DNA of 64,000 nt, taken from NCBI GenBank assembly GCA_030272155.1, contig CP126202.1:4423501-4487500 (forward strand). Direction: 5' to 3'. The stretch comes from Tetradesmus obliquus (lineage: Eukaryota; Chlorophyta; Chlorophyceae; Sphaeropleales; Scenedesmaceae). The notes beneath the pieces are model-generated. The model was not told where the DNA came from. It worked only from the letters and a program-made list of their open reading frames with translations, and ran no database searches. A program made the position numbers and the translations under genes. Below, in pieces: positions 12,023 to 63,958 of the stretch (position 1 is its first letter; each line of letters opens with the position of its first letter).

Positions 12023-14170
12023 ATGTCGACACATGTATGCTTGCCTCTGCTAGGGCTGGTGCAGCGGCACGGCGCCCGAGTCACCACGACGTGCGGGTGC
12101 AGCACACTCACCGGCCAGCAGCTTCACGATCGCGTAGCTCTGCTTAGCTGGGGCTTGTCAAACGTATACCACGTAGCCCCAGGAGACAGAGTGGGCTTGC
12201 TAGGCCTCAATTCAGACACGTTCTTCATAGCCTTGCTAGCAGTTCTGGATGCAGGAGCAGTAGCCTGCCCTATGAACTGGCGCTGGTCTGATGCGGAGGG
12301 GGCAGCTGCAATCGACCTCACGCAACCCACTCTGCTGCTGGCTGACGAGGCATGCATGCAGCTGGCATGCTCTGCTCAGGCAAGGGCAGCGCATCACAGC
12401 CAGCTGCTGCTGCTGGACGCAACTGCATGCGGAGCAACAGCTGCTGCTGCCCCAGCAGGACTTGGGGACTCGCTTGCTGTTTCTGGACACGAACCCAGCA
12501 GCAGCAACAGCAGCAGCAACTGCAGCAGAGGTAGTAGCAGGCAGCCAGGCTCATTGCAGGAGCTGCTTGCTGCAGCGGCTGCAGCACATCAGGCTGCAGC
12601 AGCACCCCAACAGCAGCATGCCCAGACACCTGCCTTGTTGACCCAGAAACAGCAGCAGCAGCAGTCTCAACAGCAGCAGCAACAACAGCAGCCTCAACAG
12701 CAGCAGCAGCTCCACCCCAAGCTGCAGCTGCTGCAGCCCAGCAGCGGGCAGGCAGCAGGTGCTGCCCTCATCTGCTTCACTTCAGGCACCACAGGCGCCA
12801 GCAAAGCAGCAGTGCTAAGCCATGTCAGCATACTGCACCAGTCTATGGCCAAGCTTGCAGTTGTGCAGTACAGCGCTGATGACGTGTACCTACATGTGGC
12901 GCCGCTGTTTCATATAGGAGGCCTCAGCTCTGCTTTTGCAGTGCTGCTGGCGGGCGGCGCGCATCTGTTCATGCCCAGGTGAGACATGTGAATGGTCCAA
13001 CACTAAGATGGTACCAGCAGATGATATCAACAGGTGTCAATGCATCAGCTGCTTGCTTCTGTTGCAATTGGGGGCCTCAGCTCGGCGTGTACGGTGCTGC
13101 TGGCGGGCGGGGCGCATGCGTGCATGCCCAGGTGAGAGATGTAAACGGTCTAACACCAACCAATAGTACCAGCAGATGAGTTGGACGGATACCGTATTGA
13201 CAGCGGCGTGTGCGGTGCTGCTGGCTGGCGGGGCGCATGCGTGCATGCCCAGGTGTCAGGCAGGGGCATGGCCCACAGATAGCAACGGCAGGTATGATGG
13301 ACATCCACAAGTAGCATCTGCTTGCTTCTTTGGCTTTGTGTCATGAGCTTCGTGCTTCATCCTGGCAGCAGCATGCTTAGGATAGTTGTGACAAGGTCGT
13401 GGCCGGTGTTATGCACGCAGCATGGTTGTGCTGCCTTTCCTGCAAGCTGTTCCTGCAAGTGACGCCTGCAGATGGGACGCAGGTGGTCCTGCAAGCTCCT
13501 GGTTGCCCCTAGTTGCCCCTGGTTGCCTTCTGCTTTGACCTCTGTGTTGAAATGCACAGGTCTTGAGTGCCCGTGTGCTTCTGGCACCTGGCTGTGCCAT
13601 GAACTGTACTCCTCTAGCTCCTATATATCTTCTGGTCCTCACATGCTGTCCTTGCGCCTGCCCCTGCTGCTGTGCTGCTGTTGGCTGCAGGTACAGTGCC
13701 AGCACAGCGCTGCAGTTGATCAGACAGCACCGGGTCACCGCCATGATAGCAGTGCCAACCATGATGCAGGACATTGTGTCTGCAGCAGCAGCAAGTCCGA
13801 CAGTACAACAGCAGCAGCAGCAGCAGCAGGTGCAGCTACCCAGCCTGCAACGTGTGCTGGTTGGTGCCGGCGGGATGAGCCAGCAGCTGCAGCAGGCAGT
13901 GATGGCGCTGTTTCCAAATGCACAGCTGTCGACAGCATACGGCATGACAGAGGGCAGCAGCTCCATCACATTCATATCGCTGCCGCAGCAGCAGCAGTTG
14001 ATGGCAGCAGCAGCAGCTAGCGGCGCCGCTGCGGCAGCTGCTGCTGCTGGGATATGCGTGGGGTGGCCTGCACCTGGCATTGCTGTGATGATACGCCCAG
14101 CAGCAGATAGTGACGGGCAGCAACCTCAGCAGCTTTCTCTGCTAGCCAACACTGTCACCAGCAACATCCA

Positions 14171-14212
<42 letters not shown>

Positions 14213-14593: not shown

Positions 14594-14652
<59 letters not shown>

Positions 14653-15060: not shown

Positions 15061-15065
15061 TGTAA
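15061..15065 (+). terminator. Candidate polyadenylation signal TGTAA (AAE14)
   Basis: TGTAA about 200 nt after the AAE14 stop, a normal 3' UTR length. The remaining sequence to 15662 shows no gene. Confidence 0.45.
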
Positions 15066-18990: not shown

Positions 18991-21493
18991 TCACTGCACA
19001 CTCCCCGTCACCACGTTGGCCACTGCAGCAGCCACAACACTGCTCACCACAAAGTGATCCACCCAGTCACTGATTTCCTGCACCAGGGCTGGGTCGCCAA
19101 CCTGCTGCGCTGCAATCAGCGGTGTGATACCCGCGCAAGCACGCGTGGGATCTGCACGACGGCTGCGTATGTAGACGCGCACAACGCCAAGCTTTGCAGC
19201 TCGCACAGCAACCAGCAGCGGCGTGGTGCCAGCAGCAGCAAAGGGGGGCACAGCAGTCTCCACAACATCGCTTGGGTCCAGATCTCGGTGCCAACCCAAA
19301 AACTGTGTGACTTTGATGCACACAGCCGGCTCTGACAGGCCTTCACCTGTGCCCACAGAGCGGGTGAGGCAGATGAGGTGCAGTAGCTTGTCACGTGACG
19401 GAGCACCCGGCAGGTGTGGCTCCCACAGTGGAGTGGCACCGCCCACCCAGGCCTCCAACTCACCCACTAACGTAAAATCAGATAACAAGCACGCTGCTGC
19501 AATGGACCAGCCCTGGCTAACGCGTGCTGCTTTGCAGCTCAAGTGCATACGCATAGCATCAAGAGGAGATACACCATCACTGCTGCACAGCAACGGGTTC
19601 GCTCGGCCATCCTCTTTGAAGGCTAGCACTATGTTGGTATCCGCCGCTCGAGCAGCTGCCAGCAGTGCAGGCTCCCAGACACCAGAAGGCTTGCGCAGCA
19701 GAACATTTGGGTCACCAACCTTGGCTAGCATGACCTGCACAGCAGCGCTCCAGTCCCACAAACAGCCATTCATCAGCCTAGTCAGATAAAGACGCCGCTC
19801 ATGTGACATGCCACCAGGTGCAGCCATTGCCAGACATTCCTCAATGTCCTTAGCACTGAACATATGCAGCAGCCTGAGCTGCTGATCAGGGCGCCCACCC
19901 AGCAGCCAGTCAGCAATCTCAGCTGCAGCCATGGGTGAACTGTTGAGGCATGCCAACAGCAGTGGCAAGTCACCGTTGCCATCAGGAGCGTCAGGCCTGA
20001 TTCGACCATCTTCACGCAACACACGCAGCACACCAATTGCGCAGTCAGTGGCTGCTGCAGCCGTCATGGTTTTTGCTGGTTCTCCACTTGTGACAAGCAC
20101 AGCCTCGTTCAACCAACTCTCTTCACTGCTCAACTTTGCCAGCAACACACGCACGACCTCTGGTTCTACACCAATCACGCACTTCGAACCAGCAGATCAC
20201 GTAAGCGCAGGCTGCTGCTGCTGATGTCAGCATCATACTGCATGCTGCTGTACAACAGCAGAGCAGCCATGGCTGCTGGAGCCATTGCAGCCTTGGCTCC
20301 CCTACGTAGCAGCAATGCAATGACTTCCTCATTTTCACAGCCGTCTAGTGCACTGCTGCCGTCAGGCCCTACCACATTAGGGTCAGCACCTGCGTTCAAC
20401 AACGCCTCCATCATGTGAATGTCACCACGCATTGCAGCAACCTACAGTGCAGTGCAAGCTTTGTGGTTAATTGCCGAGGAAATTGTTTGATGGTTTGGAT
20501 CAGCACCTGCAGCCAAGAGGATCTGTACAGCCTCTGAGACCTACGTAGCAGCAATGCAATGACTTCCTCATTTTCACAGCCGTCTAGTGCACTGCTGCCG
20601 TCAGGCCCTACCACATTAGGGTCAGCACCTGCGTTCAACAACGCCTCCATCATGTGAATGTCACCACGCATTGCAGCAACCTGCAGTGCAGTGCAAGCTT
20701 TGTAGTTAGTTGCCGAGGATATTGTTTGATGGTTTGGATCAGCACCTGCAGCCAAGAGGATCTGTACAGCCTCTGAGAAGCCCATGGCAGCAGCACAGCC
20801 GAGGGGTGTATACGGTATTAACCCGGTTCCCTCTCTGTCAGGGTCATGAGACGATAGAAACACATGCAGCGTGATGATCTTCCAGAACCGCACAAATCGC
20901 CAATTGCTGCCTGCTGCAGCCCAGTGCAGAACAGGCATCCCTCGGTCATAAGCTGATGACTTGCTGCCAGTTTGGAATCCAACTGGGACCACGCTGTACC
21001 TGGCAAACATTGCTGCAAAAGCAGGCAACAACGGCAGCCAGCTTGTAATAAAAAATAAGCATATGAGCGTGCTTCCTGCACCTGCAACTGCAGTGGTGCA
21101 CGATAACCACAGCGCAGCTGCTATCATCAGCAGCAGTGGCCACAGTGACACTGCAAAGAACGCCAGAGCACCCTCAAGCCAATCTGTGCCCATAGTGACT
21201 GCCACTGCCACCAGCAATGTAGTCAGCTCCAGCAGCAGAGCAACAGGCCCGGCCACACTGTAAATGTCCCTCCATCGAGCACAGCTAGCTGAACTGTTGC
21301 ATGCAGGCTGCGTCTCCTTCCACTTTGAGGCGTTGTAGATGACCTCAGGGGGGTTGAGAATGACAGAAAGGATGGCTGCAGTGATCAAAGCAGCAACCAC
21401 ACTCAAAGACGTCGTGACGCCCTGCAGGTAGCTGTGGTACCGCTGGTGGTGCGCGAAACAGGCGTTTGCGCGCTGTGAGCCGTCAACCATCAT
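18991..21493 (-). CDS. Ankyrin-repeat membrane protein, frame needs one repair
   Basis: The N-terminal part (from 21493) has several hydrophobic segments (SLSVVAALITAAILSVIL, VALLLELTTLLVAVAVTM, LICLFFITSWLPLLPAFAAMF). Ankyrin repeats follow: TPLGCAAAMG, ALQVAAMRGDIHMMEALLNA and GADPNVVGPDGSSALDG, then more divergent ones up to TPLLVAVRAAKLGVVRVYI. Plant ankyrin/PGG proteins carry the membrane part at the C-terminus; here it comes first. A 239-bp tandem duplication (copies 20540-20778 and 20301-20539) can be removed as a GT-AG intron, 20680-20442, restoring the frame. A second break near 20178 needs one extra base to join LRDLLVRSA to IGVEPEVVRV. With both joined the protein is about 754 aa. 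No function can be assigned; a membrane sensor or scaffold is only a guess. Confidence 0.6.
20301..20778. repeat. 239-bp tandem duplication inside the ankyrin gene
   Basis: Two adjacent copies with an offset of exactly 239 bp and only a few differences. One difference turns CTGCAG into CTGTAG on the coding strand of the left copy, creating TAG immediately before GTTGCTGC. 239 is not a multiple of three, so unspliced readthrough shifts the frame. Confidence 0.95.
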
Positions 21494-23437: not shown

Positions 23438-24045
23438 ACGCCAGCATCATGACGGGCCCCTCACACCACACACACGGTGCATTGTGCACTGTAAATGCCA
23501 CGGGCCCATTGCTGGTCATGAAGTGAACACCCACATAGCTGCAGCAACAGCACCCCGCCACAGCTTCCAGTCCCGTGCCTGGTGTGCAGACACACATACC
23601 CTACACTGTGCGCTCGAAGGTAACGACTTCCGCGGTTGTCATATAGGCATTCTTCTGGCGGTGCTGATCCGCTGTCTGCATAAACAGCCATCCCATCACA
23701 CGTAACAGCCTCCTCACGCCACATGTGCGTTAGGGATGGTTGAAGCCACGGGCCCCTTGCTGGTCATGAAGGGCACGCCGTCACAACTGCATCAACAGGC
23801 CCCGCCGCAACCTGATGACTTCGGGCCTGGCGTGCAGACACACAGCCCCGGCACTTTGCGCTCCAAAGTAGTGCCTTCCCAAAATTGTTGTCTCGGCATT
23901 CTTCTGGCTGGGCACTGCTGCTTACACAGCAACATGCCCGTGCCCCCTCTCAATGCCATCAGGCTCATCATGGCCACATCACGCCACGTGTGCATTGGGC
24001 AGTGTTGATGCCACTGGTCCCTTGCTGGTCATGAAGGGCACACCC
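23438..24045 (-). repeat. Tandem copies of the AIMP1-like last exon
   Basis: The word GCTGGTCATGAAG, from the terminal exon (coding [10 protein letters not shown] in reverse), occurs at 23511, 23759 and 24024, spaced 248 and 265 bp, with similar flanks on both sides. The rightmost is the in-frame exon; the other two lie downstream of the stop and are degenerate. Confidence 0.85.
23922..23926 (-). terminator. Candidate polyadenylation signal TGTAA (AIMP1-like gene)
   Basis: Minus-strand TGTAA 53 nt past the stop at 23979. If used, the two downstream exon copies would lie outside the mRNA. Confidence 0.4.
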
Positions 24046-27000
24046 TTGTAGGTGGGAGTGCCGTCTGCAGCAGCAGCAGCAGCAGCGGGCGGCGGCAGCA
24101 GCAGAGTTTCCAATAGCCGTTACGATCACTGCAGAGGTCGCAAGCGTCAAGTGCCCGCCATGGTGCACCCTCCCCCGCCCATCACGTGCACACCCTCGCC
24201 TCATTACTGCCGCACAATCAACAAACAAGCAGCTGTGATCCAAATCTCCGTAACTTAAAGGCCTGTGATACTCGTTGCATGCAGTGGAAAAGTACAATGC
24301 GGTGCCTGCATGTTGCTGTTCTACCAAAACCACCACCAGCAGCAGCATGCCAGCTGTTCCCAGCTCACCTGCTGCTGTGGTGAGGTCAGGGAAGAGCCGC
24401 TCCAGGATCTTGCGCTTGGGGTTGACCTCCTCCAGCGGGTCAGCGGTGTAGCTGCAGGGTTTGAAGCAGGGAAACATGGCAGGTCAAAGCTGGAGCGAGG
24501 GTTCCCAACCAGCAGGGAATGCTGCAGTACACGTGCTGCCATCGAGCAGCAACAACCAAATATGGCATATTAGCTGCACGCAATTGCCATGCGACTGTAG
24601 GACACTTGAAGACAACTGCTAGCGTGGCTGCCGCCGCCGCTGCTGCTGCTGCTGCTGCCGTCGCTTCCGCTGCTGCCGCTGCTGCTGTCACTGCTGCTCA
24701 CCCCTCAAAGGTGATGCGCTCCCCCACAGGCACGCCCTCAGGTGGTGTGATGGGGTCCACCTTGTCATGTGTATCGTTTGACGCACACAGCACCTACAGA
24801 CACAGCAGCAGCAGCAGAAGCGAGCATAGCCTTCAGCCAGTTCTCACACATATGTAGCGAGAAGGGTCACTGGGACCAAACCAGCATGGCCACTGATACC
24901 AGTTTTTTTATTGACACACATAAGATTGGAGGCATGCGCAACTACAGCGATGCCAGCTGCCTCAACACCACGAACGCCCCGACGTTTTGCCTCAGATATT
25001 CTCAAACTTTTCTTGCACATCACTCAGCGAGGCGAGCCTCTCATGAGCGGTGTGTGTTCATCACAGGCGGCCAACAAACAGAACATGCAGATATCACAAA
25101 GCATCATAAAGAATCTACAAGGCATCAAGCTCTCTGCAATAACATTACAACACATTACATCACATGTTCCACTCAACAAGGTGTGGGAACCCCAGTCAGG
25201 AGCCAACGAGAGGCTCTTAGGGGGAATAAACCCCAAGCTATTTGCAGGCCGCTGCTCCATTCATCAGTTGCGCATGGCGCCCTTGGCTGGCTGCAACACA
25301 CACCAGGCAGCTCAGACCCCACCGCCGCAATCAGCAAAAAGTGAGCAATCACTGCTGTCCCCTTACCATGCCATATGACATGATGTCCCTCATCTTGGCC
25401 GGCTTCAGGTTGCAGCACACCACCACGCGCCGCCCCTCCATCTGCTCCTTGGGCACAAACTTGACCAGGCCGCTGATGACCTGCGGGCAGGGTTTCAGCA
25501 GCAGGTTGCAGCAACAGGGTTTGGCAAAGTATAAAAACGTGTAATCACACGCCGGCCCTCCATCTGCTCCTTGGGCACAAACTTGACCAGCCCGCTGATG
25601 ACCTGCAGGCGGGGTTTTGGCAGCACAGTAGGGCAGCAGGGTTCAGCAGAGATTGGATACAAAGATAGGATTTGAGCTTGGGACTGACAGCTGGCAACAA
25701 AACAACAGAGGAACAAAGGAGGTAGACACTAAAAACCGTTGTACGCATGCCCGACAGCAGGGCCTGGCAATGAGGCACACAACTGACCTTTTACACACCC
25801 AAACCAAGCAGTCTGCAACACAAGCCACTGTGCCATGGCCTCGGCACTCACCTACTGAGTGGTGAAGTCACGGGGTGCCGTCCAGGCACCCTCGGTCATG
25901 GAAGTGTGTGTGTTCAGGGTTTCGTCATCGGCCACGACACGGCAAGCCACAACACAACAGCCACATACACGGCTGTCAACCTTTCTGTTGCGATGTAGCC
26001 ATGGCCTGAGCAACATCAACTCCACCAATGTGTTGGCCCATCGTTCACACCCAAGCCTCCCAAAACACAAGCACTACGACTCCCATGCATTACAACCCAA
26101 CCTCAGCAGCGAAACCGCACCTGGCGCGGCTTTTCCTCCCTCACATCAATCTTCCAGGTACAGCGCGTCTGCATTCATCCCCCACACCAACCAATCACGC
26201 CCCGCACCCCTGCGCAGTTCGTAAACCAAGCACTACTCAACTCAAACCAAACACAAAGCCGCACCTGGCGCGGCTTCTCCTCCCCCACATCAATTTCCTC
26301 CAGGTACAGCGCGTCACTGTCACACCAAAGCCCTCGATCCAGTGCAGAACCCAAGCACTAGATGCAAACCCCCAGCAGAATGCCACACCGCACCTGGCGC
26401 GGCTTCTCCTCCCCCACATCGATCTCCTCCAGGTACAGCACGTCAGCGTTGGGGTGCTGCTGCACGCTCACAATCTTGCCAACGCGGATGTCCAGCATGT
26501 CGATGCGCGGCTCCTCAGCCTCCTTGTTGGGCTTTGGCGCTGCATCTGCCTTCTTCTCCTTCTTCTTCTCCTTCTTTTCCTGCTTGCCACCAGCTGCTGC
26601 TGCTGCACCTTCTGGTGGTGCGGCGCCTGCTGCTGCAGCAGCTGCCGCGCCTGCCGCTGCAGGTGCCGGTGCTGCTGTGGTTTTGCTGCTGCTACTGCTG
26701 TCTGCTGCTGCTGCTGCTTTGCCGCCAGCTGCTGCCTTTTCCTTCTTGCCACCACCCTGCATGCAGCAGCAGCAATGGCACAACTGAGGTGAGCTTCTCA
26801 GATCAATCCCTGGGCATCCAGAGCATATGCTGTGCGTGTTAAACTGATCTGAAACACCATACAATCACTCACGCCAGGAGATTTGTCGCTACAAGCCAAC
26901 AGCCAAAACACTGACAGCTACACCAACACCAAGACACCTCATGCCAGATACGCCAGGTGATGCACATGCCCACCGCACAAAACAACGAAGAATCAGCGTG

Positions 27001-42697: not shown

Positions 42698-42730
<33 letters not shown>

Positions 42731-43615: not shown

Positions 43616-43910
43616 ATATCCTGGAATATCTTGGATCCTTTGTGGCAGTTCAGTATCTGCCATTTGGTGCATTGTTGAGGAGGATGCAGCTGAGGCAAAG
43701 GAGGACCAGGCGTAAAAATCATGGAATATCCTGGTTCCTTTGTTGCTGCTCAGTATCTGCCATTTGGTGCAATGAGGAGGCTGATGCAGCAGAGGCAAAG
43801 GATGACCGCCTAGGCGTAATTGTGCCTTTTTGCTTTACAAGGGCCTGGTTGGTTGCTGCTGTGTGATGCGGAGGGTGCAGCAGCTTATGCCAAGGAGGAC
43901 CAGGTATAAG
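42639..43910 (+). repeat. Repeated exon edges of MIP copy A
   Basis: The exon-9 start (CCTTTGTG.CTGGCTTTGGCCC) appears first as a decoy ending in TGA (42639-42691). Exon 10 start GCAACCCTCCCAAGCG appears at 43319 and at the real 43434. The exon-10 end (GATGCAGCTGAGGCAAA..AGGACCAGGC.TAA) recurs at about 43671, 43771 and 43863. Confidence 0.85.
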
Positions 43911-49444: not shown

Positions 49445-49775
49445 CGCTTACGCCTCAACCTCCTTGGCATCAGCAGCACCAGAAGCGTCCTTGCCGCCGG
49501 TGAAGGTGCTTGTGAGCTTAGATAGCGCAGACAAAAAATCACAAAGCACAGCGCAAGCAGCCAGGCTGGATGGCTTATCATAAGCAGTGTTTGATTATGC
49601 CTCCACTTCCTTGGCATCATTGGTGGTGTCCTTGCCGCCAGTAAAGGTGCTTGTGAGCTTGGATGGCGCAGACAAGAAAGCGCTGCGCGCATTGGCGCCC
49701 ATGCTCTGCAGGTGGCTCAGCAGGTCTGTCACGTTCTCATCACCACCCTCGCGGAAACGCTTGGGGGGGTTGCCT

Positions 49776-49814
<39 letters not shown>

Positions 49815-50150
49815 GCGGCAGCAGCAGCAGCAACGTCGCTACATGTTGGCGCCGATACTCTGCAAGTGGCTCAGCAGGTCTGTCACATTCTCATCGCCAC
49901 CCTCGCGGAAACGCTTGGGGGGGTTGCCTGCAGCAGTAGCAGCAGCAACAGCAGCAGCAGCAGCAGCAGGGCACATGCGAATATGTTGGCGCCCATGCTC
50001 TGCAGGTGGCTCAGCAGGTCTGTCACGCTCTCATCACCACCCTCGCTGAAGCGCTTACGGGGGTTGCCTGCAGCAGCAGCAGCAATGTGGCAACATGTTG
50101 AGAGGTCGGTGCAGGTGGCTCAGCAGGTCAGTCAATTTATGCCGCCGCCC
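49445..50150 (-). repeat. Repeated exon-10 segments of MIP copy B
   Basis: The exon-10 start (minus strand GGCAACCCCC..AAGCG, then GACAGACCTGCTGAGCCACCTGCAGAGCATGGG) occurs in the real exon and at about 49855-49935, 49985-50072 and 50095-50150. An exon-end copy lies downstream at about 49445-49530. (CAG)n tracts sit between the units. Confidence 0.85.
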
Positions 50151-53100
50151 TCTCTGAGACGCTGACCATGCCTCTCCATGCCAGATGGTGCGCAAGGCCA
50201 TAGTAAAAATCACATCACAATCACATTCAGACCGTCAGCAACAGTCACACACACCGTTTTTCCACATCAGCAGCGCCTCCATTTCATACATCCATCCTTT
50301 GAACTCTGGATCATACATTGTCGTTACCCAGAAAAGGAAATTCAAACACGCTGTAGCCACGCGCCAATAATCCACATCCACAGCGCCTTCACCCCAGACA
50401 CCTTCTCTCGGATCAGAGACCATACATCATTGTTATGGAAATCAAACAGCATCCCCTCTGGCCCCACGCACCTGTGATCCACATCCACAGCGCCTCGCTC
50501 CTCTTCAGCTGGAAGGCAGCCATAGAGGAAAAGGGGGACAGCGGGCCGAAGCCAGACACAAAGGCAAAGATGGAGCAGGCCAGCAGTGCCGCCAGCAGCT
50601 CTGCCAGGATGTAGATCCACGCCAGCTCCTTGCCGCAGCCAAACACAGCCAGAGGGCCTGAACCAGCAGCAGCAGCAGCAGCAGCAGCAGCGTAGCAACG
50701 AGTCAGGCGGCGGTCTTGTGCAGTTGCATACCCGTGCGACACAGCATACCACACCACAGCATGTAGCTAGATGGTTACTGCATGCAGACAGGCCTTTTGG
50801 CCAGCTAGCAGGCCTGCAGCAGCAAGCATCCTTGTTGCACAGCTGTGCAGCATTGCTCACCAACTTGGAACTGGACTGTGCCTGGCTGTATAGATATTGC
50901 AAGCAGGCAGACCTGCTTTGGCCTGATGCATGCATTCAGCAACCCCACTCCTGTCGCTAATATAATTTCCTCCAATAAACCGACAATTCACAGCATTGTA
51001 CTGAGCACGTTGGTGCGCACACAAATCTCTTCGCCAACACTGCTGCATCCCTCACTCACCGATCACGCGTGCGGGGTTGAGTGCCGCCCCGGTGTACTTG
51101 CCTCCCGTGCCTGCGCATGCCACCAGGCTGAGCCCCACCACCAGCGGCGTGAAGCTGCCATGGCCGGGCTTGGCCACACCGCAGGCATACACCACACTGA
51201 TGAGCGTGAAGGTCATGACCACCTCCCAGCCAAACAGCTGCGCATTGGTCATCTCCTGGTGAACGGTGGTGGGGTCAAAGCAGCCGGGGCCTCCGTTGCC
51301 CATGCCTGCGCAAGCGGTAACATACCATTAGCACAACTTTAATTCAGCAAAATGCAGCTGCAAAGTGTTGTGGCGGTCACAGCAGACCGAACCGCCGTTA
51401 CCCATGCCTGCAGGGCGCAGCAGTTCAAAAGAGGCATCATGTTGAAGTTAGGATGGATTGTGAAGACCTGCGCATTGGTCACCTCCTGGTGGACGGTGGT
51501 GGGGTCAAAGCAGCCGGGGCCACCGTTACCCATGCCTGCAGGATAGGAGAATCAGTGTCAATTGACAATGGTGCGACACTATGCTTGTTGTGAGTGATGT
51601 CAGGGTGCACGGTGGTGGGGGCGAAGCAGCCGGGGCCGCCGTTGCCCATGCCTGCAGCATGACACACAACAATATATGAACATTTAAATTTTTGGGGCGG
51701 GTGGTGGGTGGAAAGTGCTGGGGTGGATGGTGGTGGGGTCAAAGCAGCCGGGTGGGAAGAGCAGTGTCACTAAGCAATGGTTCGGCCCTGTGCTTGTAGT
51801 AGGTCATGTCAGGGTGGACGGTGGTGGGGTTTGCCGCACCGCCTGCAGTTTGTCACCCTGCCGTCTTTCTGGACTGAGGTAACAGCACCCGGGACAGCAT
51901 GCAGCAAGCTCAAGACACCCTGCGCCCACAGCGATTGGATTCTTCCGGATATGTACTGGCTTTTGCATTGGGTTTGGATTGGATTTTGGATTGGATTGGT
52001 TTTGGATTGAGATGTGGAACACATGCAACTGGGCTGCCCACTCACCCACGTGTGCGCCAGGCACTAGAGCAGCAGCCAGCAGCGAACCAAAGATGGACCC
52101 AACAATCTGCAGCAGCAGCAGCAGCAGCACCAGCAGCAGCAGCAGGGGCAACACAGGGTGATTTCACTGTCCTTGTTTGCTGGTGTTCAGTAGCAGCTGC
52201 GGTGCCTGCTGATGCTGGCAATACAGCTTGACCAGATCAACTAAGAAGTTTGTGCATTGAGCATGCGGTAGATGACAATGAGTGATTTGCAAGCAGAATC
52301 TGTGGCTGGCACACATGCATACTGTGGATGTACATCCACCAGCCATGCACATTAGACATTGCGCAATATACCATCACAAAGAGCCAGCACAGCAGCAGCA
52401 GCAGCAGCAGCAGCAACACCGCCCCACCTGCAGAGCGATGTACAGCATGGAGTGCAGCAGCGGGTAGAAGCCGCACAGCAGCGTGCTGCAGCAGCAGGCA
52501 CACACAGCAGCAGCAGCAGCAGCAGCAGCAGGATATCAGACGCAGTTTGGTGAGATGAAAGCTGCGGCATGCTGTGGCGGGCCCAAGCAACGCAGCAGGG
52601 GCTGACTGCAACATGCATTGTGCATGTGGCAGAAGAGGCTGCTGGATGTTACAAGCGGCAAAATGACAAACGAATGTAACAACAGCTGATGCATGTCCAG
52701 GCGACGTGCTCCCATGCTCAAACATTGATTGGCTGCTGTGATAGGCAGCGGTTGTGCTGACCAGCAGCAGCAGACACCCTCCCCTCCCAGCCACCCACCT
52801 CATGGTCACTGCTGGGTTGAGGTGGCCTCCTGAGATGTTGGCGGCCATGTAGATGCAGATGCTGCGGCAGCAGCAGCAGGCAGCAGCAGCAGCAGCAGCA
52901 GCATGAGCTCCAAGTGATGATAAAGCTGGCAGGTGTGTTACACAACAAGAGTCTGCAATCAGGGACGACCAGCACAAAGTACTTGAAACCAGTCATAAGT
53001 GCAGCAGGCAGGAGTCACTGAATAGCGTGGGAGACTCACGCGAGCGCCAGGCCGTTCACCCATGGGGTTGCAGGACTGTGGGTTTTACATTCTAGGAGCA

Positions 53101-54624
53101 GCAGCAGCAATGCGCAGTCACTCACGCGAGCGCCAGGCCGTTCACCCATGGCCCGTGCACTGGGTCACTGACAGTAGTCCCCAGGAAGCTGAAGATGAGC
53201 ACACCTGCAGCGGCAGCAGCAGCAGCAGCAGCAGCAGGGGTGAGAAGAGAGTCAGCGCATGCAATGTGCCATACACAAGCTGCACTAAGTGTGTATGTGT
53301 TGTGCCGCAGGGGCTGTGCACTGTGGCATGTGCTTGCCGCAGTACAGTTGAGTGGAATGGGGGTGCGTGACACAGCAGTGCTGCAGAAGGAAGTGGCCAG
53401 GGTGTGTAAGGAACATGATGCTGACGGACACTGCCTGCTGCACAGCTGCTTACCCTATCGCAGTGGAGTTCGATGTCAGTGTACTGCAGTGTGCAGCAGC
53501 AGCAGCAGCAGCAGCAGCCAAGGTGGGAGTTAAACGGCCGTCAACCGGCATCAAACTGTGTGGCACAGCACGTGCCTGCAACAAACTGCACTGCAGCTGC
53601 AGGATCCTGCAATGCTCATCATGGCAGCATGCAGCATGCTGCAGTTTCTATCCAATAAAAATGATGCTGCCTTTGAAAGAAAGGGCTCTGCTGAGGCCCT
53701 GAGCACCCCTGAGGGGTTGGGGTGGGGGGATGGGTGGGGTAGGGGGCCGGGGGGAGGGGAGTGGCAGCGGGAGGGGTTGTGCTGAAGCAAACAGCTGACA
53801 CATGTATAGTTTGTCCTTTTGTGCAGGCTTATGTGCGCATGCGCTGTGTCTGGCCGAAGACTGAGAAAATAATCCTGACGGTACCACAAGGACGGGGTGA
53901 GTCTGGTGTAAGATGATGAGAACAGCGAGCAGACTGACCAAGAGGAGCCCGTTAGATAATTTTTACTTTTGGCTTTCGAAAACTCCCAGCACAGCTCTGA
54001 ATACCACAATCGCCTCTATCTAATCAGCCGCTCTTCACGGGTGGTGTGTAGCAGCACCTGCTGCTTGTGCAATTATCCTAACTGTTGGCATTTAATGCAC
54101 GAGCAGGCGCCAGTCCATCGACTCACCCGAAGCCAAGTTCGCCGGACAGAAATGCAAGGTGCAGAAAGATACAAGAGGTGGTGGTCAGTATCTCATTGTC
54201 TCAAGACAAAGCTATGTAATGACTGATGCGCTGATCGGTATTCATAAACGTCTCTGCTGCTGTTGCTGCTTAGTGCGAGCTGCCAGCGCCGACAGTGCGT
54301 CTGGAGCATGAGTACTGCCTCTGATCAGGATACGCCATTCATGATTACAATCAACCGATAGCAGGACTTGCAATGCATCACGTGCGTGTGCAAAGAGCTT
54401 ACGATGAACTCCACAATCAGCGAAACGCTGAAAGTCCGGGAGGCGATGGCCTGGTAGTTGCTGAACACCTGCAGAATCGCGCAACCATTTCGTATCATTA
54501 ATGTGCTTTTGTAAACAGCAGCGGAGGCTGTGAGAGCAGCTGCTTTGTATAGACCGGCCGGGTAAGCTGCTGAGCTGTGCAACACACGCCAGCTCACCGT
54601 CTCCTGATCCACTGCGGACGGCAT
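49595..54624 (-). CDS. Aquaporin / MIP-family channel, copy B
   Basis: Paralogue of copy A, in opposite orientation. Exons: 54624-54598, 54468-54403, 53204-53126, 52861-52799, 52485-52428, 52106-52046, 51305-51060, 50657-50472 and 49773-49595. Exon lengths equal those of copy A except that exon 50657-50472 (186 nt) is copy A's two 93-nt exons fused without an intron. Both NPA boxes and the following Arg are kept, and the start MPSAVDQET mirrors MPSTVDQET. The tail (GGDENVTDLLSHLQSMG) resembles A and then diverges. As in A, an exon of 3n+1 nt is missing from the model between 54403 and 53204; a conserved block at 54127-54156 matches 39575-39604 but lacks an obvious AG acceptor. Very likely functional as a channel if that exon exists. 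Confidence 0.82.
51385..51832 (-). repeat. Four to five copies of MIP-B exon-7 start in the preceding intron
   Basis: The real exon start (plus-strand view GTGGTGGGGTCAAAGCAGCCGGGG ending CCCATGCCTGCG) is echoed at about 51385-51418, 51468-51540, 51600-51655, 51718-51755 and 51808-51832. Two keep the CCCATGCCTGCAG acceptor and an open frame. Confidence 0.9.
53036..53080 (-). repeat. Copy of MIP-B exon-3 end with donor
   Basis: ACTCACGCGAGCGCCAGGCC at 53036 repeats the exon-3 end and GTGAGT donor found at 53121-53145. Confidence 0.85.
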
Positions 54625-57569: not shown

Positions 57570-57961
57570 CCTGCAGCTGATCCGCTTGGGCTCGGGCCCC
57601 TGCTGCTGCCTCCTGGCTGCTGCTGCTGCTGCTGTGGTGCTGTGTCTGCCATGGCCTGGTGGAGCTTCTGCTGCACCTGCTGCTGCGTCTCGCTGCGGGG
57701 CCGCCGCACACCTCCACCCTGCGATGCATTACATAGCACCCGCACCGCAGGCAAGCAGATAGAACAAAAACAGGTCAGGCTTGCAAGCCTGCCACTTGGC
57801 GAGCCAAAACTTGAAACAGCAGCAGCACAGGCGCCTCGCACCCCCACCCTGCGATGCATTACATGGCACGCACGCACCACAGGCAAGTAAACAGCACGGT
57901 GTAAGAACAGCAACGCAGCACTAGACAAGGCTGCAAGCCTGCGCATGGCAAGCTAGATGCT

Positions 57962-58015
<54 letters not shown>

Positions 58016-61000
58016 CACCACCGGTTTTCGGCAGGAGGATGCTGTTGGCAGGAGAATGACGACATTTGGTGACCAAGCAAGGATGCTGTAGCACAGCCGC
58101 CTCATAATCAATACGGCGAAATAAGCAAAGTGTTACTACTATGCACTTGTCCCTGCCCAACAATGGCTGCTAGTGCTTCAAAGTGATTGGCAGATTTGAA
58201 GGAAGTCACAAGGCATGTTGGCATAAACGGCCCAAATGCATTTAGGCTGTGCATGCCACGATGACTGTGATTCAGTTCAGATCAGCTCAAGCACCTCAAA
58301 ACACCAGAAGCCAAAACATTGCGGCAGCAGCCTGTTTGATCACTCTTTGGGCCTTGCCAGGATCGAACTGGCGACCTTAGGATGCCTCTCACTCGCAGTG
58401 AGTCATGTTATGAGACCTACGCGCTAACCAACTGCGCCAAAGACCCAGCCCAACATGCCAGCTCCAACTGGGGCCAGCAGCCGGCTGCAGGCAACTGCCG
58501 CTGTTGCTGCAGGCAGCAGTGCCGCGCCTGCTGACTGTCATGTGGCCATGCGACCGCTACTGCTGCCTCTGGGGCGATAGCTTGCCCACCCCTGTAACAG
58601 ACCTCTCTCGCCGACTTCTGGGCTGCAAGATGCCTCTGGAGTTTCACTTTAATTGCATCTTGTGGCTTGCTATCGGGTTCTCATGATATGTGAGCTGAAA
58701 GAGGGGCAAGTGACGCGCTCTAGGGCGATGGCTTGCCCACCCCTGTAACAGACCTCTCTCTCGACTTCTTCATGCCAAACACCTATGGTAAGCAGCACCA
58801 TTGTGCATCCCGCTTGCTGTTTGGACCATGCCTGCCTTCCCTTGTGCGTTTTGTGCCCTGTGCTTTGAGCACCCTGCTGCTTTTCGTGCTGCACTTCGCA
58901 CATGCTGCACTGCATGTACTTGTTGGTTTATGGGGAGGTAGGGGCTGCAAGATGCCTCTGGAGTTTCACTTTGGTTGCATCTTGTGGCTTGTTATCGGGT
59001 TCTCATGATATGTGAGCTGAAAGAGGGGCAAGTGACGCGCTCTAGGGCGATAGCTTGCCCACCCCTGTAACAGACCTCTCTCTCTCTCTCTCTTGCCCAC
59101 CCCTGTAACAGACCTCTCTCAGCGATTTCCTGTGCACACCGTTGAACTCCTCTCGGCGCAACATAAAATAATATAGAACCACATCTCCTTCCCGCTTTCC
59201 CTAGAGGCCTACAACCAAGCTGCATGCCTCACCTGCACCATGTCGCGGTACTAGCCCTCACCTTCAGATTAACCACAGACACCCACAAACAGTACACCAG
59301 CCAAAAACTAAAGTGCAGCAAGCAAGCCTCTCACCTGCACCATGTCGCGGTACCAGGCCGCATAGCTGCTGTCCACCACGTTGTAAGCCGCTGTAAGCCG
59401 TAAAACCTCAACACATAAAACCAGCAATTTGCCGAGTGCAGCAAGCACGCCTCTCACCTGCACCATGTCACGGTACCACGCCGCATAGCTGCTGTCCACC
59501 ACGTTGTAGGCAGTCAGGAACAGCGGAGGCAGGTAGGAGCCGTCGGCACTGACAGGGGCGGGCTGGTAGCGCGCTCGCGGCACGTAGGAAGCCGCACGGC
59601 CAGCCAGCCTGCACAGTACATGCATGTGTGGCAGCAGCAGCAGCAGCAGTGCGTTGAGCAAACACTACAGAGGCACCCACATCACATGCAGGTGGCACGT
59701 TAACGTCACACCCTCACACGTTTCAACGCCTCAGCGTGCAAGCCTCGGCCCCCGAAACCCTAAGCACAGCTTGCCCAACATCCATCTGCCTGATCCAGTT
59801 TCTAGAACACCATTAGATTCAAATGATCACAAAAGGAGGCTACTTCAACAGGACCTTCCTGCATTTTGTATCATCACCCTCACCTGGCCGCCTCTGCTGC
59901 CCGCGCCAGGCTCATGTTCTGCACGCCCCCCGACATCAGGTGATCCAACGCATCCACATCCTTGCGCGCACGCGCTGCCGCTGCCACTGCTGCTGCCGCA
60001 GGACTTGAGTGGGCCTCCCCATTCAGTGACTCGTCATTGTCATCGTCATCGTCTGCTGCTGTTGTGGTGGGTGCTGCTGCGTCATCCACCCCAGGCAGCG
60101 ACATGTGGCGGAACTTGCAGGATGCGCCAAACCTGCAGACAACCCAGCAGCAGCAGCAGCAGCAGCAGGTGCGCAGGCGAAGTCACTACAGCTATCGCGG
60201 CTGCAGTGAGTTGCGATGCTGCTGTTGCGCTGATCCAGCAGGTGAGTGCAGTAGCACTGGCAGCCCACACAGCAGAGCACTGCCCTCATGATCCCTGCCA
60301 CAATCCACCAGAGCTGAATATATTTATAAATTATATACATTATATAAACATAATTTTTATTTATATTGTTTGAAAATGTTATCTTAATGGCGCCTGGGCT
60401 CACCTGCATTTTCCCTGCTGCCAGAACACACACAGGGGTGGGATCTTGGGGCTTTTGCGTGGCGCTGCTGCTGCTGCTGCTGCTGGGGCCTGCTGCACCT
60501 CCTGCTGCTGCTGCTCCTCATCCTCTGCATAGTCTGCTGCATCATACTCTGCCTCATCGCCGTTTGCATCATCTGCGTGAGTGTCTTCTGCGGCGCTGCT
60601 GCCCTCGCCTGCTGCTGCATCGTCACTATTGGCGTCCTCCTGCTCTTCTACCTCTGCAGCAGCAGCAGCAGCAGCGGCAGCGCATGAGTTGAGCAGTGCA
60701 CACCATACACAGGAGCGCTAGCTTGCCCATCATACAGCAAGGCATCAGCAGGCTCAAACTGCCCTCCATAACTGTTAGTTTGACATGGTGCCATTGTGCA
60801 CTGGCAGCCAGCAGCCGCCCAGGTTGTAGAAAGCCAGGCACGGCTGCACAAACAAGCAGCCATACAGCCACAACGCCTGCCATATGCTGATAACGGACAC
60901 CAGAGATAAGGCAGACACAGCAAGTCAGCCAGCATCAGCACTCCTACAACACTGCAGCATCCAGCCACACACACCCTCCTCCTCCTCCTCCTCTGCCTCC

Positions 61001-61254
61001 CCCTGCCCCTCTTCACCATCCTCTTCCTTCTTTGCAAACATCGCAGCAAAGCCAGCATCCCTGTTCTTCTTCTTCTTGCTGGCCTTGCCGGCCGCGCTGC
61101 TGCTGCCGCCGCCGCTGCTGCTGCCGGCAGCGCGGCCGGCTGTTTTGAACTTCTGAGGTGTGTTCCAGGTGCCCCAGTCTGGCGTGCCGCTCCATGTGTG
61201 GTTGCCTGCCAGGCCTGTGCGCACCTTGACAGAGTACTCGGTGCCTGTGGGGTG

Positions 61255-61301
<47 letters not shown>

Positions 61302-63958
61302 GAGGTTAGGCACAGCAGCACGTACGGCGTGCCCCCCCAGGTGTGGTTGCCTGCAAGGCCTGTGCGCACTTTTACAGAGTACTCGGTGCCTGTGGGCAGC
61401 AGCAGCGGGTGGTAAGGCAGCAGCAGCAGCAGCAGCAGAGCGGTGAGGTGGGAAGCAGTACAGATGGCAACGTCTCAGCAGGTGTGGTTGCCAGCCAGGC
61501 CTGTGGGCACTTTTACAGAGTACTCGGTGCCTGTGGGGTGGAGCAGCAGGAGGAGCAGCAGCAGCAGCAGCAGCAGAGAGGTGAGCTGGGGAACAGTACA
61601 CATGGCAACGTATCAGCAAATGTGGTTGCCTGCAAGGCCTGTGCGCACATTTACAGAGTACTCGGTGCCTGCGGGCAGCAGCAGTAGCGAAGAGGTGAGG
61701 TGGGCAGTGGCATGGCATGGGCGCAAGTAAGCGCTTTGCAGGTATTCCGTGCCAATGGGAGCAGTGGGTTGAGCAGAGCGGTGGTGAGTGCAGTGCCGCT
61801 ACAAACACTGCAGGCAGGTGTGTAGGCGTGCCATGCAGTGGCAAGAGATGGCAAGCAATGGCATGCATTTGTGCAGTGCCTTGCCACGCGATGATGTGCT
61901 GCTGATCAGTAGCCTCGCATGCCTCATTTGTGTGGGGCCCAAGAGTGCAAGGCAAAAGTAACAAAGTAACAACATTCAAACAAAGTGCCGACAGATGTGC
62001 TGCTGATCAGTAGCTCGGCATGCCTCATTCGTGTGAGGCCCAAGCGTGCCAGATACAACAGAGGTGCTTTGGCAAAGTATCCCAATGCTCAGTGCTTGAG
62101 GGAAGCAGCAGCGAGCTACGAAGCTTTGCACAGTGGCAATACGTTTCAGGTACAACAGCGCAGGCTGCACACACGCACGCACGCACATATGCACGCATAC
62201 ATATACACAACACACGCCTCACCTGCCCGCAGCTTGGGCAGCTGTATGGTGTCATACACAGCATCCAGCGCACCATGGCAGCAGCACAGCAAGCCACAAC
62301 CGCCTGTCCTGTGCCAGAGCCCTCTGATTCCCCCTCCCACCACACACGGCTGTGTTGCAACCGCCACAGCCCTCACCTGGCTGCAGCTTGGGCAGCTGTA
62401 TGGTGTCATACACAGCATCCAGCGCACCATGGCAGCAGCACAGCAATCAACAACCCCCTGTCCTGTGCCAGAGCCCTCTCAATCCCCCTCCCACCACACA
62501 CGGCTGTGTTGCAACCGCCACAGCCCTCACCTGGCTGCAGCTTGGGCAGCTGTATGTTGCCATACCCAGCATTTAGCAGACCACAGCATCTGCAACAGCC
62601 AGCAACAACACTCTTTCCTAAGCCAGCACCACAAACCGCCACAGCCCTCACCTGGCTGCAGCTTGGGCAGCTGGATGCTGTCGTATTCGCGTGTTGCCAG
62701 CAGACCACAGCATTCTCAACAGCCAGCAACAACACCCTTCCCTTTCTCAGCACCACCAGCTGCCACACGCCTCACACCCCTCCCCCTATCCCCTGGCATC
62801 TCACCTGGCTGCAGCTTGGGCAGCTGTATGTTGTCGTACCCAGCATTTAGCAGACCACAGCATCTGCAACAGCCAGCAACAACACTCTTTTGTAAGCCAG
62901 CACCATACAACCGTCATAGCCCTCACCTGGCTGCAGCTTGGGCAGCTGTATGTTGTCATACTCGCGTGTTGCCAATAGGCTGGTCCACTTCTTGTCACCA
63001 GCAGCACTGAAGCTGACCTCCCACTCCACACCCTTCGGGGGCAGCTGCAGCATGGAAGTGAGGCAGGCAGAACAGACATAAGTTGCTTTCTTTCTATAAC
63101 TTGCTTGAAATGCAAAGCAGACACGCATGTGCAGCTGAAGCTGACCTCCCACTCCACACCTTTTGGAGGCAGCTGCGGCAGCAGCAGCAGCAGCAGCAGT
63201 GCAGCAGAGCAAACATGAGCTGCTTGCAAGGCAAGCTAGTGCACGCATGGGCAACTGAAGCCGGAGCATCCAGCAGCACGACAGATCCAGTCAGCCAGAT
63301 CCAGGTAGCTGATAATGGTAACCGATATATGTCACTGCTGCAGTGCCACGTGTTATGGTGCCGTGCAGCAGGCTCAAGTCCGGTGCGTCCAGCAGCAGCG
63401 TGAGGCTGCTGTTGGCCTATCAGCAGCGGTCACGCAATCACAGCAGCAGGCCAGACACGCACCTTGCCATTGAGCAGGCTGAGGTCGGGTGCATCTAGGA
63501 GTGTACAGAAAAGCCACTCAGCAGCACACAACGGCCGTAAACTACCCATACTGCTGCCCTATTACACTCTGCTCACCTTGCCATCCAGCAGGCTCAGATC
63601 GGGTGCGTCCAGCACCAGCGTGAGGCTGCTGTCAGCAGCAAACAATACAGACATCCAGCCAGACCTAACCAAACCCTACCCAATCAGGTGACTGCTGCAG
63701 TGTCATGCAGTCTCACCTTGCCATCTACCAGGCTCAAGTCCGGCGCATCCAGCACTAGCGTGAGGCTGCTACTTGCCTATCAGCAGCGGTCAAGCACCAG
63801 TCACAGCAGTACCCCAAACATGTATCATAAACACACACCTTTCCATCCAGCAGGCTTAGGTCGGGTGCATCCAGCACGAGAGTGAGGCTGCTGTCGGTGG
63901 CGGCGTGCAGCAGCAGGCGCGGCGTCTGGCGCAGAAAGTGCTCACGGATGACCCGCTC
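56870..63958 (-). CDS. FN3-like plus double CCCH zinc-finger protein (5' end beyond window)
   Basis: Seven exons join in phase to 668 visible residues: 63958-63839, 63044-62927, 61244-60975, 60653-60404, 60132-59884, 59608-59458 and 57718-56870. The first three give an FN3-like module (GVEWEVSFSAAGDKKWTSLL, YDNIQLPKLQPGTEYSVKVR). A Lys-rich then Glu/Asp-rich linker follows. CCCH finger 1 is CVFWQQGKCRFGASCKFRH and finger 2 is CKLFRFGQCRHGDNCNYLH, both CX7CX5CX3H and split by a conserved-looking block (TAYNVVDSSYAAWYRDMVQ). The C-terminal 180 residues are Gln/Pro/Tyr-rich and end PYRPF. CCCH fingers of this type usually bind RNA, and the Q/P/Y tail suggests a phase-separating mRNA regulator (inference). 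The last intron holds a tRNA gene. Confidence 0.82.
57958..58014. repeat. (GCA)n tract
   Basis: About 18 GCA units in the last intron of the CCCH gene. A second tract, about 15 CTG units at 57521-57566, encodes poly-Gln in its last exon. Confidence 0.9.
58349..58446 (-). tRNA. tRNA-Met(CAU), elongator type, with a 25-nt intron
   Basis: On the minus strand the acceptor stem GGGTCTT pairs with AAGGCCC. The D arm is GCGC-AGTTGGTTA-GCGC. The anticodon loop is CTCATAA, interrupted after position 37 by an intron (58408-58384). The T arm is GCCAG-TTCGATC-CTGGC. The mature length is 73 nt without CCA. TGGCGCAGTTGG and GTTCGATCC are the internal A and B boxes for RNA polymerase III. The sequence matches eukaryotic elongator tRNA-Met, not the initiator. 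It lies within, and on the same strand as, the last intron of the CCCH gene. Confidence 0.93.
58565..59125. repeat. Repeat block with 332-bp offset in the CCCH-gene intron
   Basis: GGGCTGCAAGATGCCTCTGG through CTCTAGGGCGAT occurs at 58619-58730 and 58951-59050. CTTGCCCACCCCTGTAACAGACCTCTCTC occurs four times (about 58583, 58731, 59055, 59093). Confidence 0.9.
59228..59386 (-). repeat. Copies of CCCH-gene exon-6 end
   Basis: The exon end TGGTACCG(T/C)GACATGGTGCAG plus GTGAG donor (real at 59458) recurs at about 59331-59386, with a longer match upstream, and at 59228-59256. Confidence 0.9.
60305..60385. other. AT-rich patch in an intron
   Basis: An almost pure A/T stretch (ATATATTTATAAATTATATACATTAT-like) in the intron between the two halves of CCCH finger 1, in an otherwise GC-rich region. 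Confidence 0.7.
61257..61301. repeat. (CAG)15 tract next to an acceptor
   Basis: On the coding (minus) strand this is (CTG)15 ending 13 nt before the acceptor CAG of the exon starting at 61244. Confidence 0.9.
61340..61672 (-). repeat. Three copies of CCCH-gene exon-3 start in the upstream intron
   Basis: GTGTGGTTGCCTGC.AGGCCTGTG.GCAC through AGTACTCGGTGCCTG, the exon start with its CAG acceptor, recurs at about 61340-61396, 61480-61536 and 61619-61672, each separated by (CAG)n. Confidence 0.9.
62222..62850 (-). repeat. Five extra copies of CCCH-gene exon-2 end
   Basis: CTCACCTG(G/C)C(T/C)GCAGCTTGGGCAGCTG.ATG (reverse of NIQLPKLQP plus GTGAG donor) recurs at about 62222, 62374, 62527, 62646 and 62802, besides the real one at 62921. 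A copy of the exon-2 start lies at about 63120-63175. Confidence 0.92.
63361..63775 (-). repeat. Four copies of the first visible CCCH-gene exon end
   Basis: The exon end coding SSLTLVLDAPDLSLLDGK recurs at about 63361-63412, 63461-63500, 63586-63634 and 63715-63775. At least two keep an open frame and a GTGAG donor. Confidence 0.9.

What the first reader, a model, noticed from the sequence alone, without database searches (positions are those of the whole stretch)
12979..63775. Exon edges are copied in tandem into introns and 3' flanks of nearly every gene
Copies of exon ends or starts, together with donor or acceptor, were found beside the AAE14 gene (2), AIMP1-like (exons 2, 3, 4, 5, 8), RAP (exons 3, 5 and five terminal copies), F-box-like (exons 2, 3, 4), both MIP genes (exons 3, 7, 9, 10) and the CCCH gene (exons 1, 2, 3, 6, 7). 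This is more than 40 copies in 51 kb. Units are about 40-265 bp, often flanked by (CAG/CTG)n, and range from near-identical to decayed, so the process seems continuous. I know of no general description of a nuclear genome in which splice-site-spanning segments are the preferred unit of tandem duplication. Consequences could be decoy splice sites, alternative exons or new introns.
Basis: seen in the sequence. Interest (0 to 1): 0.88.

Follow-up and report, generated by a model that had tools for sequence, protein, structure and literature searches.

The report
Exon-edge copies scattered in algal introns
In this genome, probably of a green alga, short copies of the ends of exons, splice signal included, sit in neighbouring introns two to three times more often than copies of adjacent sequence, which leaves many possible decoy splice sites whose origin is not yet explained.

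Summary
In 324 kb (window, both flanks, 24 other 10-kb places) near direct repeats cover 15% of the sequence; an order-2 shuffle gives no near pair at 50 bits. With gene models from a self-trained gene finder, 28-nt windows at the edge of exons of 90 nt or more have a local copy in 107 of 491 cases, against 39 of 503 on the intron side and 21 of 277 in mid-exon. The excess holds without the window contig (73/383, 23/387, 13/214) and under a locus bootstrap. Exon-internal sites that only look like splice sites are not enriched when exons are weighted equally. Many copies stop about 6 nt past the donor or 3-5 nt before the acceptor. They are not held to a reading frame and are overwhelmingly direct repeats. 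CAG/CTG tracts are not enriched at their ends. Best reading: recurrent short copying of exon edges into the adjacent intron, tolerated because the copy is spliced out. Hand-set simulations of neutral tandem duplication, with or without gene conversion, did not give the size of the bias. Its cause is unknown.

The parts
12905..13275 (+). AAE14-like (AMP-binding) gene: exon end at 12978 with donor, plus decayed copies in the following intron
   Evidence: Pfam AMP-binding
20301..20778 (-). two 239-bp units, 98% identical, spanning exon and intron of a predicted gene (ankyrin-like by eye, not tested); young contiguous tandem duplication
23462..24045 (-). Arc1p/AIMP1-like gene, decayed copies around the exon predicted at 23988-24064
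25424..25651 (-). copy of the start of the exon coding [18 protein letters not shown] with its own CAG acceptor (25549-25602), upstream of the exon at 25367-25480
   Evidence: tRNA_bind domain
26112..26450 (-). exon end coding [11 protein letters not shown] + GTGCGG at 26394 and two copies of it (ending 26265 and 26121); the last has a 2-nt deletion
27470..28025 (-). copies of an exon start (27470-27694) and of an exon end (27781-28025) in the same gene
25830..27138 (.). 141-bp repeat, 94% identical, two copies 1168 bp apart in introns of the same gene; no other copy found in the genome search
30322..30639 (+). exon end at 30405 with donor and a copy in the next intron
31500..31680 (+). 55-nt exon end + GTGAG and its copy 126 bp downstream; flanks unlike each other
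33038..34239 (+).
36124..36681 (+). copies of exon edges in the F-box-like gene (122-bp units; 70-nt copy 173 bp away)
40717..43615 (+). MIP gene 1 (exons predicted from 40717; upstream exons near 40421-40502 seen by comparison with MIP2)
42646..42994 (+). MIP1: copy of exon 9 start with acceptor (42646-42682) and copy of exon 9 end with donor GTGCG (42933-42994)
43284..43500 (+). MIP1: copy of the last-exon start (43318) before the real one (43434)
43556..43819 (+). MIP1: 100-bp repeats of the coding end and stop in the 3' flank
49595..54468 (-). MIP gene 2, inverted paralogue of MIP1
49692..50163 (-). MIP2: repeated starts of the last exon (50067, 49927, real 49775, decayed one near 50107-50163)
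51238..51829 (-). MIP2: copies of the exon-7 start beginning at CAG|GCATGGG (51651, 51535, 51407; real 51305), with mostly unlike upstream flanks
53034..53151 (-). MIP2: 32-nt exact copy of exon-3 end + GTGAGT, 86 bp downstream of the real edge; the real edge keeps the intron start shared with MIP1
57702..57887 (-). exon-edge copy, CCCH gene
59312..59511 (-). exon-edge copy, 95% identical, CCCH gene
61181..61675 (-). 138-bp units overlapping a predicted exon, CCCH gene
62211..62974 (-). copies of the exon end ...CTGCAGCCAG|GTGAG (real boundary 62926; copies at 62804, 62530, 62376); last 28 exon bases 27-28 of 28 identical to the real ones, intron part decayed or unlike
63331..63897 (-). decayed copies around the exon predicted at 63837-63958

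Best explanation
Short stretches of exon edge (mostly 30-65 nt of exon plus about 6 nt of intron at donors, or 3-5 nt at acceptors) are repeatedly copied, in direct orientation, into the adjacent intron, typically 100-350 nt away. The original edge stays in use, so the copy is spliced out with the intron, is tolerated, and then decays as non-coding DNA carrying a possible decoy splice site. This runs on top of an ordinary background of larger local tandem duplications (unit plus flank), which produces the rest of the repeats. Shown: the copies, their preference for predicted exon edges, ends aligned with splice signals, direct orientation, lack of frame constraint, and presence in most sampled loci. 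Inferred: that they arise by short-patch copying (replication template switching or templated end repair) and that alignment with splice signals comes from how or where copying stops. Not shown: use of the original edge in RNA, and why genuine splice edges are preferred.
For: Edge preference: (107/491 vs 39/503 vs 21/277; internal GT- and AG-like sites about 10% against 24% donors and 19% acceptors with exons weighted equally). Ends: in 103 edge-only donor pairs +1..+6 identity is 0.74-0.88, then 0.43 at +7; in 81 acceptor pairs 0.96-0.74 over the last four intron bases, then 0.58; overhang peaks at 6 nt for donors (20 of 156) and 3-5 nt for acceptors (42 of 142); ends of spaced pairs of >=95% identity fall on long-exon splice boundaries in 43 of 336 cases, 6.6 expected, maximum 12 in 30 shifts. 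Identical edges with unlike flanks (flank identity under 0.7; random mean 0.57): 30 of 76 pairs with 28/28 exon-edge identity against 5 of 76 for the control seeds together. Direct: 428 direct against 35 inverted near pairs. Non-coding copies: 20 of 21 gaps not 3n; mismatches 0.057, 0.050, 0.128 by codon position in 68 clean pairs of 184 edge-only ones. Pasting into an existing intron: MIP2 exon 3, a 32/32 identical copy while the real edge keeps the intron start shared with MIP1.
Against: Many edge-only pairs are not isolated pastes: spacer and matching flank beat all 15 controls in 45% of 94 donor and 58% of 48 acceptor pairs (6% expected), and local flanks beat all 20 controls in 64 of 147 on the intron side and 43 of 147 on the exon side; so part of the class is decayed larger units. 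Unlike flanks at 28/28 edges are not in themselves strange: with an ungapped measure the share is 0.50 of 76 in the genome and 0.32 of 37 in the neutral simulation. At acceptors the similarity before the exon is about what two unrelated acceptor sites would share (my reckoning from the matrix), so the acceptor end may lie at the exon's first base. Spacers have no traced source: 11 of 150 had a hit (25-82 nt) in another sampled locus. I know of no mechanism that stops copying at +6 and -4. Boundaries come from an ab initio gene finder without RNA evidence; with nothing masked the event-level excess is smaller (58 against 44).
Confidence: 0.48

Rival explanations
1. Differential persistence: ordinary short tandem duplications with random ends; those spanning one exon edge survive because the copy falls in the intron, and the exon part stays recognisable longer because the original is under selection.
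For: In 88 alignments holding both parts, exon mismatch is 0.084 against 0.146 in intron, near the neutral expectation; in 53 units found by their intron part, exon and intron parts diverge about alike up to 20%; copies are not frame-constrained; residual flank similarity; the neutral simulation also gives unlike flanks at 0.32 of its 28/28 edges.
Against: The simulation without conversion gave edge 0.09-0.11, intron side 0.09-0.10, mid-intron 0.17-0.18, against 0.24-0.28, 0.10-0.12 and 0.08-0.09 in the genome; unlike flanks are nearly absent for 28/28 intron-side seeds in the genome (0.03 of 31) but not in the simulation (0.24 of 34); the step at +6 of donors is not expected.
Confidence: 0.27
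2. Gene conversion: old tandem units whose exon-edge part keeps being overwritten from the constrained exon while the intron part drifts.
For: MIP1 and MIP2 last-exon copies look orthologous at their junction, by eye, yet carry gene-specific variants; MIP1/MIP2 exon identity is patchy (differences 1/63, 2/58, 11/61, 15/246, 2/93, 18/93; chi-square p = 1e-6); the end of similarity equals the edge of constraint; at 20-25% intron divergence the exon part shows only 7% (4 units).
Against: Units found by their intron part show no slower divergence of the exon part up to 20% (49 of 53 units); simulated conversion at three rates did not create the asymmetry because intron copies are homogenised too; concerted change was looked at in one place only.
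Confidence: 0.12
3. The copies are functional (regulatory decoy splice sites or cassette exons) and kept by selection.
For: Splice signals are retained in many copies (156 of 207 donor pairs with both sites scoring above 1); third-position mismatch excess.
Against: Gaps break the frame; the third-position excess is roughly what a neutral copy of a constrained exon gives; decayed copies such as M2_c1 and the 2-nt deletion in the copy ending at 26121 show loss.
Confidence: 0.08
4. Artefact of assembly or of gene prediction.
For: No reads or RNA were available; some predicted short exons are themselves copies.
Against: The effect remains for exons of at least 90 or 120 nt and outside the window; copies range from identical to decayed; Pfam supports several genes.
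Confidence: 0.05

Closest known systems
Intron gain by tandem duplication of an AGGT-bearing exon segment (Rogers model; ATP2A1 and fission-yeast cases as described in the Introduction of PMC4974935)
   Same: Internal duplication in a gene creates extra splice sites without changing the protein
   Different: Here the copy usually sits inside an existing intron with its own donor or acceptor; only 3 of 374 introns tested look like such a gain
Potato RdRp duplication crossing an intron-exon boundary (PMC4974935; abstract and Introduction read)
   Same: Duplicated segment crosses one exon boundary and carries splice signals
   Different: One case that made a new intron; here many cases, mostly possible decoys, with a measured preference for edges across sampled loci
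Introner elements (PMC9860276; two passages read)
   Same: Repeated DNA tied to exon-intron structure
   Different: Spacers here are mostly private to their locus within the sample, and the one intron repeat searched genome-wide had two copies, both in one gene
Templated insertions and filler tandem duplications of end-joining repair (recalled, no paper read)
   Same: Short direct copies of nearby sequence with unrelated filler
   Different: As far as I recall, those have no known preference for splice boundaries

Membership tests
AGGT tandem-duplication intron gain | Upstream exon end repeated at the intron end, or intron start repeated at the next exon start | tested here: not met
   3 of 374 and 3 of 350 introns at >=18 of 25 matches, the same three introns; not met as a general rule
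Introner elements | Near-identical intron sequences in unrelated genes | tested here: not met
   11 of 150 spacers hit another sampled locus, matches of 25-82 nt; 141-bp intron repeat had 2 copies in the genome search, both in one gene
Tandem exon duplication | Whole exon with preserved reading frame | tested here: not met
   Median exonic similarity 43 nt in edge-only pairs; 20 of 21 gaps not multiples of three in 68 clean pairs
Contiguous tandem repeat (minisatellite) | Head-to-tail copies without spacer | tested here: inconclusive
   Aligned length over 0.9 of period in 34% of 143 arrays, under 0.5 in 47%; >=95% pairs: 168 spaced, 5 contiguous, 27 overlapping
CAG/CTG microsatellite-driven duplication | Repeat tracts enriched at breakpoints | tested here: not met
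   71 of 572 ends, 83 (sd 8.5) expected; repeat coverage and tract density per locus rho 0.21, p 0.31; simple repeats were masked before the ends were set
Concerted evolution by gene conversion | Copies within a gene resemble each other more than their orthologues in a paralogue | tested here: inconclusive
   Seen by eye at one edge in MIP1/MIP2; no general slowing of the exon part up to 20% divergence
Templated insertion by alternative end joining | Dependence on polymerase theta; microhomology at both junctions | not testable with these tools
   needs mutants or newly arisen events

The most novel reading that the evidence does not exclude
A splicing-linked mutational process: DNA corresponding to the footprint of splice-site recognition complexes (exon edge plus ~6 nt at donors, ~4 nt at acceptors) is copied back into the same gene's introns, for instance through repair templated by nascent RNA held at splice sites, so genuine splice sites, not look-alikes, are mutational hotspots and introns are continually seeded with decoy sites.
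Probability: 0.2. Interest if true: 0.9.

Novelty: new variant of a known kind. Interest (0 to 1): 0.62.

Why it matters
If right, mutation in this genome is not blind to gene structure: about one exon edge in five has a nearby copy (107 of 491), two to three times the rate just inside the exon or intron. That would supply decoy splice sites, raw material for alternative exons and new introns, and a direct way to study how introns grow and turn over. It would also make exon edges a mutational hotspot that can be tested by mutation accumulation.

Tried and rejected
Event-level overlap: with one copy masked 72 and 71 of 143 against 41 and 43; with nothing masked 58 against 44 (1 of 200 simulations as high). 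Masking can force false boundaries, so I moved to seed tests. A first re-alignment aligned regions to themselves and was discarded; one search replaced it. Motif control: pooled exon-internal GT-like sites first matched real donors (202 of 867, 23%), which seemed to undo the result; 155 of the 202 came from one in-exon array in L018, and weighting exons equally gave 9.7%. I first favoured gene conversion; the comparison of units found by their intron part and simulations (a pilot had too few duplications to read) did not support it as the general cause. Simulation parameters were chosen by hand, so the simulations argue about direction and rough size only. Introner-like spacers: not supported. 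Intron gain: rare. Frame-keeping cassette exons: not supported. An opposite splice site at the far end of copies was no commoner than at the same place in the real exon (58 against 61 of 103 donor pairs, 33 against 41 of 81 acceptor pairs), though both exceed the intron background of 33% and 29%. In one search, ends of contiguous and overlapping pairs showed little (1 of 10 and 2 of 54; expected 0.1 and 0.9). The tblastn step returned no rows, so exons of the contig-9 MIP genes rest. Species name: not settled; plastocyanin is closest to 2plt and 7zqe among solved structures, recalled as Chlamydomonas; GC resembles the 57% given for Tetradesmus obliquus in a table passage of PMC5966456.

Literature: eight searches listed no description of a general exon-edge duplication bias; the library lacks most subscription journals. 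Papers: PMC4974935 abstract and Introduction; PMC5966456, PMC9860276 and PMC8226300 in passages only; the rest in search listings.

Full report
Setting. The window lies in a 104.66-Mb assembly of 17 contigs (G000:C12:4423501-4487500). The pattern (CAG)7 matches 101,829 times forward and 103,641 times reverse. Gene content and composition fit a chlorophycean alga; the species is not settled. I fetched both flanks and 24 other 10-kb places, 324 kb in all with the window. Genome letters beyond that were limited.

The repeats are real. Self-alignment of the masked window gave 94 near and 2 far direct pairs at E <= 1e-3. Over 324 kb there were 428 near and 54 far pairs at 50 bits, and no near pair in an order-2 shuffle; the near pairs cover 15.4% of the sequence, very unevenly (0 to 77% per locus; 6 of 24 sampled loci have none). 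Grouped, they make 143 arrays, 46 of them on the window contig, with median unit 91 nt, period 140 nt and identity 88% for the best pair. Near inverted pairs number 35, so the process makes mostly direct repeats.

Gene models. No annotation was at hand, so I wrote a gene finder and trained it on the 324 kb itself: 54 genes, 499 exons, median intron 260 nt. It learned a donor CAG|GTGAG and an acceptor whose upstream tract is itself CTG-like (CTGCAG|G). Pfam confirmed AMP-binding, tRNA_bind with Arc1p_N_like, MIP and SRAP in its proteins; the RAP/F-box product had no hit and the CCCH product was not submitted. It fuses neighbouring genes and calls some copies as small exons, so the main counts were repeated on exons of at least 90 or 120 nt.

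Edge preference. For each predicted edge I asked whether the last or first 28 exon bases recur within 1.5 kb at 24 of 28 or better. All exons: donors 110 of 399, acceptors 88 of 372; intron side 42 of 408 and 45 of 377; mid-exon 10 of 168 and 17 of 167; mid-intron 25 of 284 and 23 of 282. Profile for exons of 120 nt or more, donors: 12% in each of the three bins further inside the exon, 25% in the last 28 bases, 8% just inside the intron. Pooled for exons of 90 nt or more: 107 of 491, 39 of 503 and 21 of 277; ratio to intron side 2.8 (2.2-4.7 by locus bootstrap); 16 loci in favour, 1 against, 8 ties; without the window contig 73 of 383, 23 of 387 and 13 of 214. Pooled exon-internal GT-like sites first seemed as rich as real donors (202 of 867); 155 of the 202 lie in one in-exon array, and with exons weighted equally internal GT-like, AG-like and all positions give 9.7%, 10.3% and 10.4% against 24.2% and 19.2% at real donors and acceptors. 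The base rate explains part of the impression: a random interval of the same length hits a predicted splice site in 29-31% of cases, against 41% (nothing masked) to 50% (one copy masked) observed.

Anatomy. Exon-seeded pairs are of two main kinds. In 'through' pairs (75 donor, 61 acceptor) similarity runs on into the intron, as in an ordinary duplication. In 'edge-only' pairs (103 donor, 81 acceptor) it stops at the splice signal: at donors identity is 0.74-0.88 over +1 to +6 and 0.43 at +7; at acceptors it falls over the last four bases, which two unrelated acceptors would also largely share. The remaining 29 and 53 pairs are intermediate. Among pairs with all 28 exon bases identical, 30 of 76 have intron flanks with identity under 0.7; for the control seeds together 5 of 76. 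With an ungapped measure the shares are 0.50 of 76 for exon edges, 0.03 of 31 for intron-side seeds, 0.17 of 30 for mid-intron and 0.40 of 15 for mid-exon. Ends of spaced pairs with at least 95% identity fall on long-exon splice boundaries in 43 of 336 cases, 6.6 expected. Of 166 such pairs that could be classed (2 near locus ends dropped), 58 in 42 places lie at exon edges, 18 in 9 places wholly in introns, 50 in 21 in exons and 40 in 16 between genes, although introns are 46% of the sequence. Copies lie downstream of donors in 87 of 103 and upstream of acceptors in 56 of 81 edge-only pairs, at a median distance of about 220 nt.

Fate of the copies. In 68 clean pairs of the 184 edge-only ones (real exon at least 80 nt, copy outside predicted exons) mismatches by codon position were 0.057, 0.050, 0.128, and 20 of 21 gaps were not multiples of three. 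That is the pattern of a neutral copy beside a constrained exon. In 88 alignments holding both parts, exon and intron mismatch were 0.084 and 0.146, and gaps were multiples of three in 17% of cases in both parts.

A polarised example. MIP1 and MIP2 are inverted paralogues in the window. At the end of MIP2 exon 3 a 32-nt exact copy, exon end plus GTGAGT, sits 86 bp downstream; the real edge keeps the intron start that MIP1 also has, and no array was found at that place in MIP1. Here the copy seems to have been added to an existing intron after the paralogues parted, without its flank. Elsewhere the picture is different: at MIP2 exon 7 the old upstream flank shared with MIP1 belongs to a copy, not to the real exon. 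Two further MIP genes on contig 9 gave no self-repeats in the 4.8 kb read.

What does not explain it. Introner-like mobile introns: spacers are mostly private within the sample (11 of 150 with a hit elsewhere). CAG/CTG tracts: not enriched. Splice-motif microhomology alone: motif-matched internal sites are not hot. Neutral tandem duplication with selection on the real exon: the simulation gave edge, intron-side and mid-intron rates of about 0.10, 0.09 and 0.17, not 0.26, 0.11 and 0.085, though it does give unlike flanks at 0.32 of its identical edges. Gene conversion: suggested by one MIP edge, by patchy MIP exon identity and by 4 units at 20-25% intron divergence, but not seen in the other 49 units found by their intron part and unable in simulation to make the asymmetry. 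Against a pure pasting model, about half of the edge-only pairs keep traces of similarity in spacer or flank, so the class is mixed.

Verdict. The feature is genuine, present in most sampled loci and oriented by predicted splice sites. The most economical mechanism is short-patch copying of exon edges into neighbouring introns plus neutral decay; why real splice edges are favoured remains open. Known single cases of boundary-crossing duplications and of intron gain by tandem duplication (PMC4974935, abstract and Introduction read) are the nearest relatives. A general, measured edge bias was not found in the eight searches listed under Tried and rejected.

Noticed in passing
acceptor sites of predicted genes, 324 kb: The learned acceptor has a period-3 CTG-like tract before CTGCAG|G in place of an ordinary pyrimidine tract.
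   Followed up: partly
40717-43615 and 49595-54468: Inverted MIP paralogues with patchy exon identity (98% in some exons, about 81% in others) and introns that mostly do not align, which hints at short-tract conversion.
   Followed up: partly
L018, about 7974-9800: A long in-exon array of near-identical units that dominates pooled motif counts.
   Followed up: no
L032, L035, L036: Local repeat coverage of 43-77% against none in six other sampled loci; duplication-prone and clean regions alternate.
   Followed up: no
1720-1820 and 4365-4510: Degenerate copies of a 12-mer like GTCCAGTTGCAC, some of them inverted, near the left end of the window.
   Followed up: no
right flank L030 (window coordinates about 71120-73855): An SRAP gene with the same kind of exon-edge copies; Pfam counts four separate domain stretches in the predicted protein.
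   Followed up: partly
L027, boundaries 700 and 590 (minus strand): An exon segment repeated on both sides of a 55-nt spacer that begins with GTAG; a possible recent intron gain.
   Followed up: no
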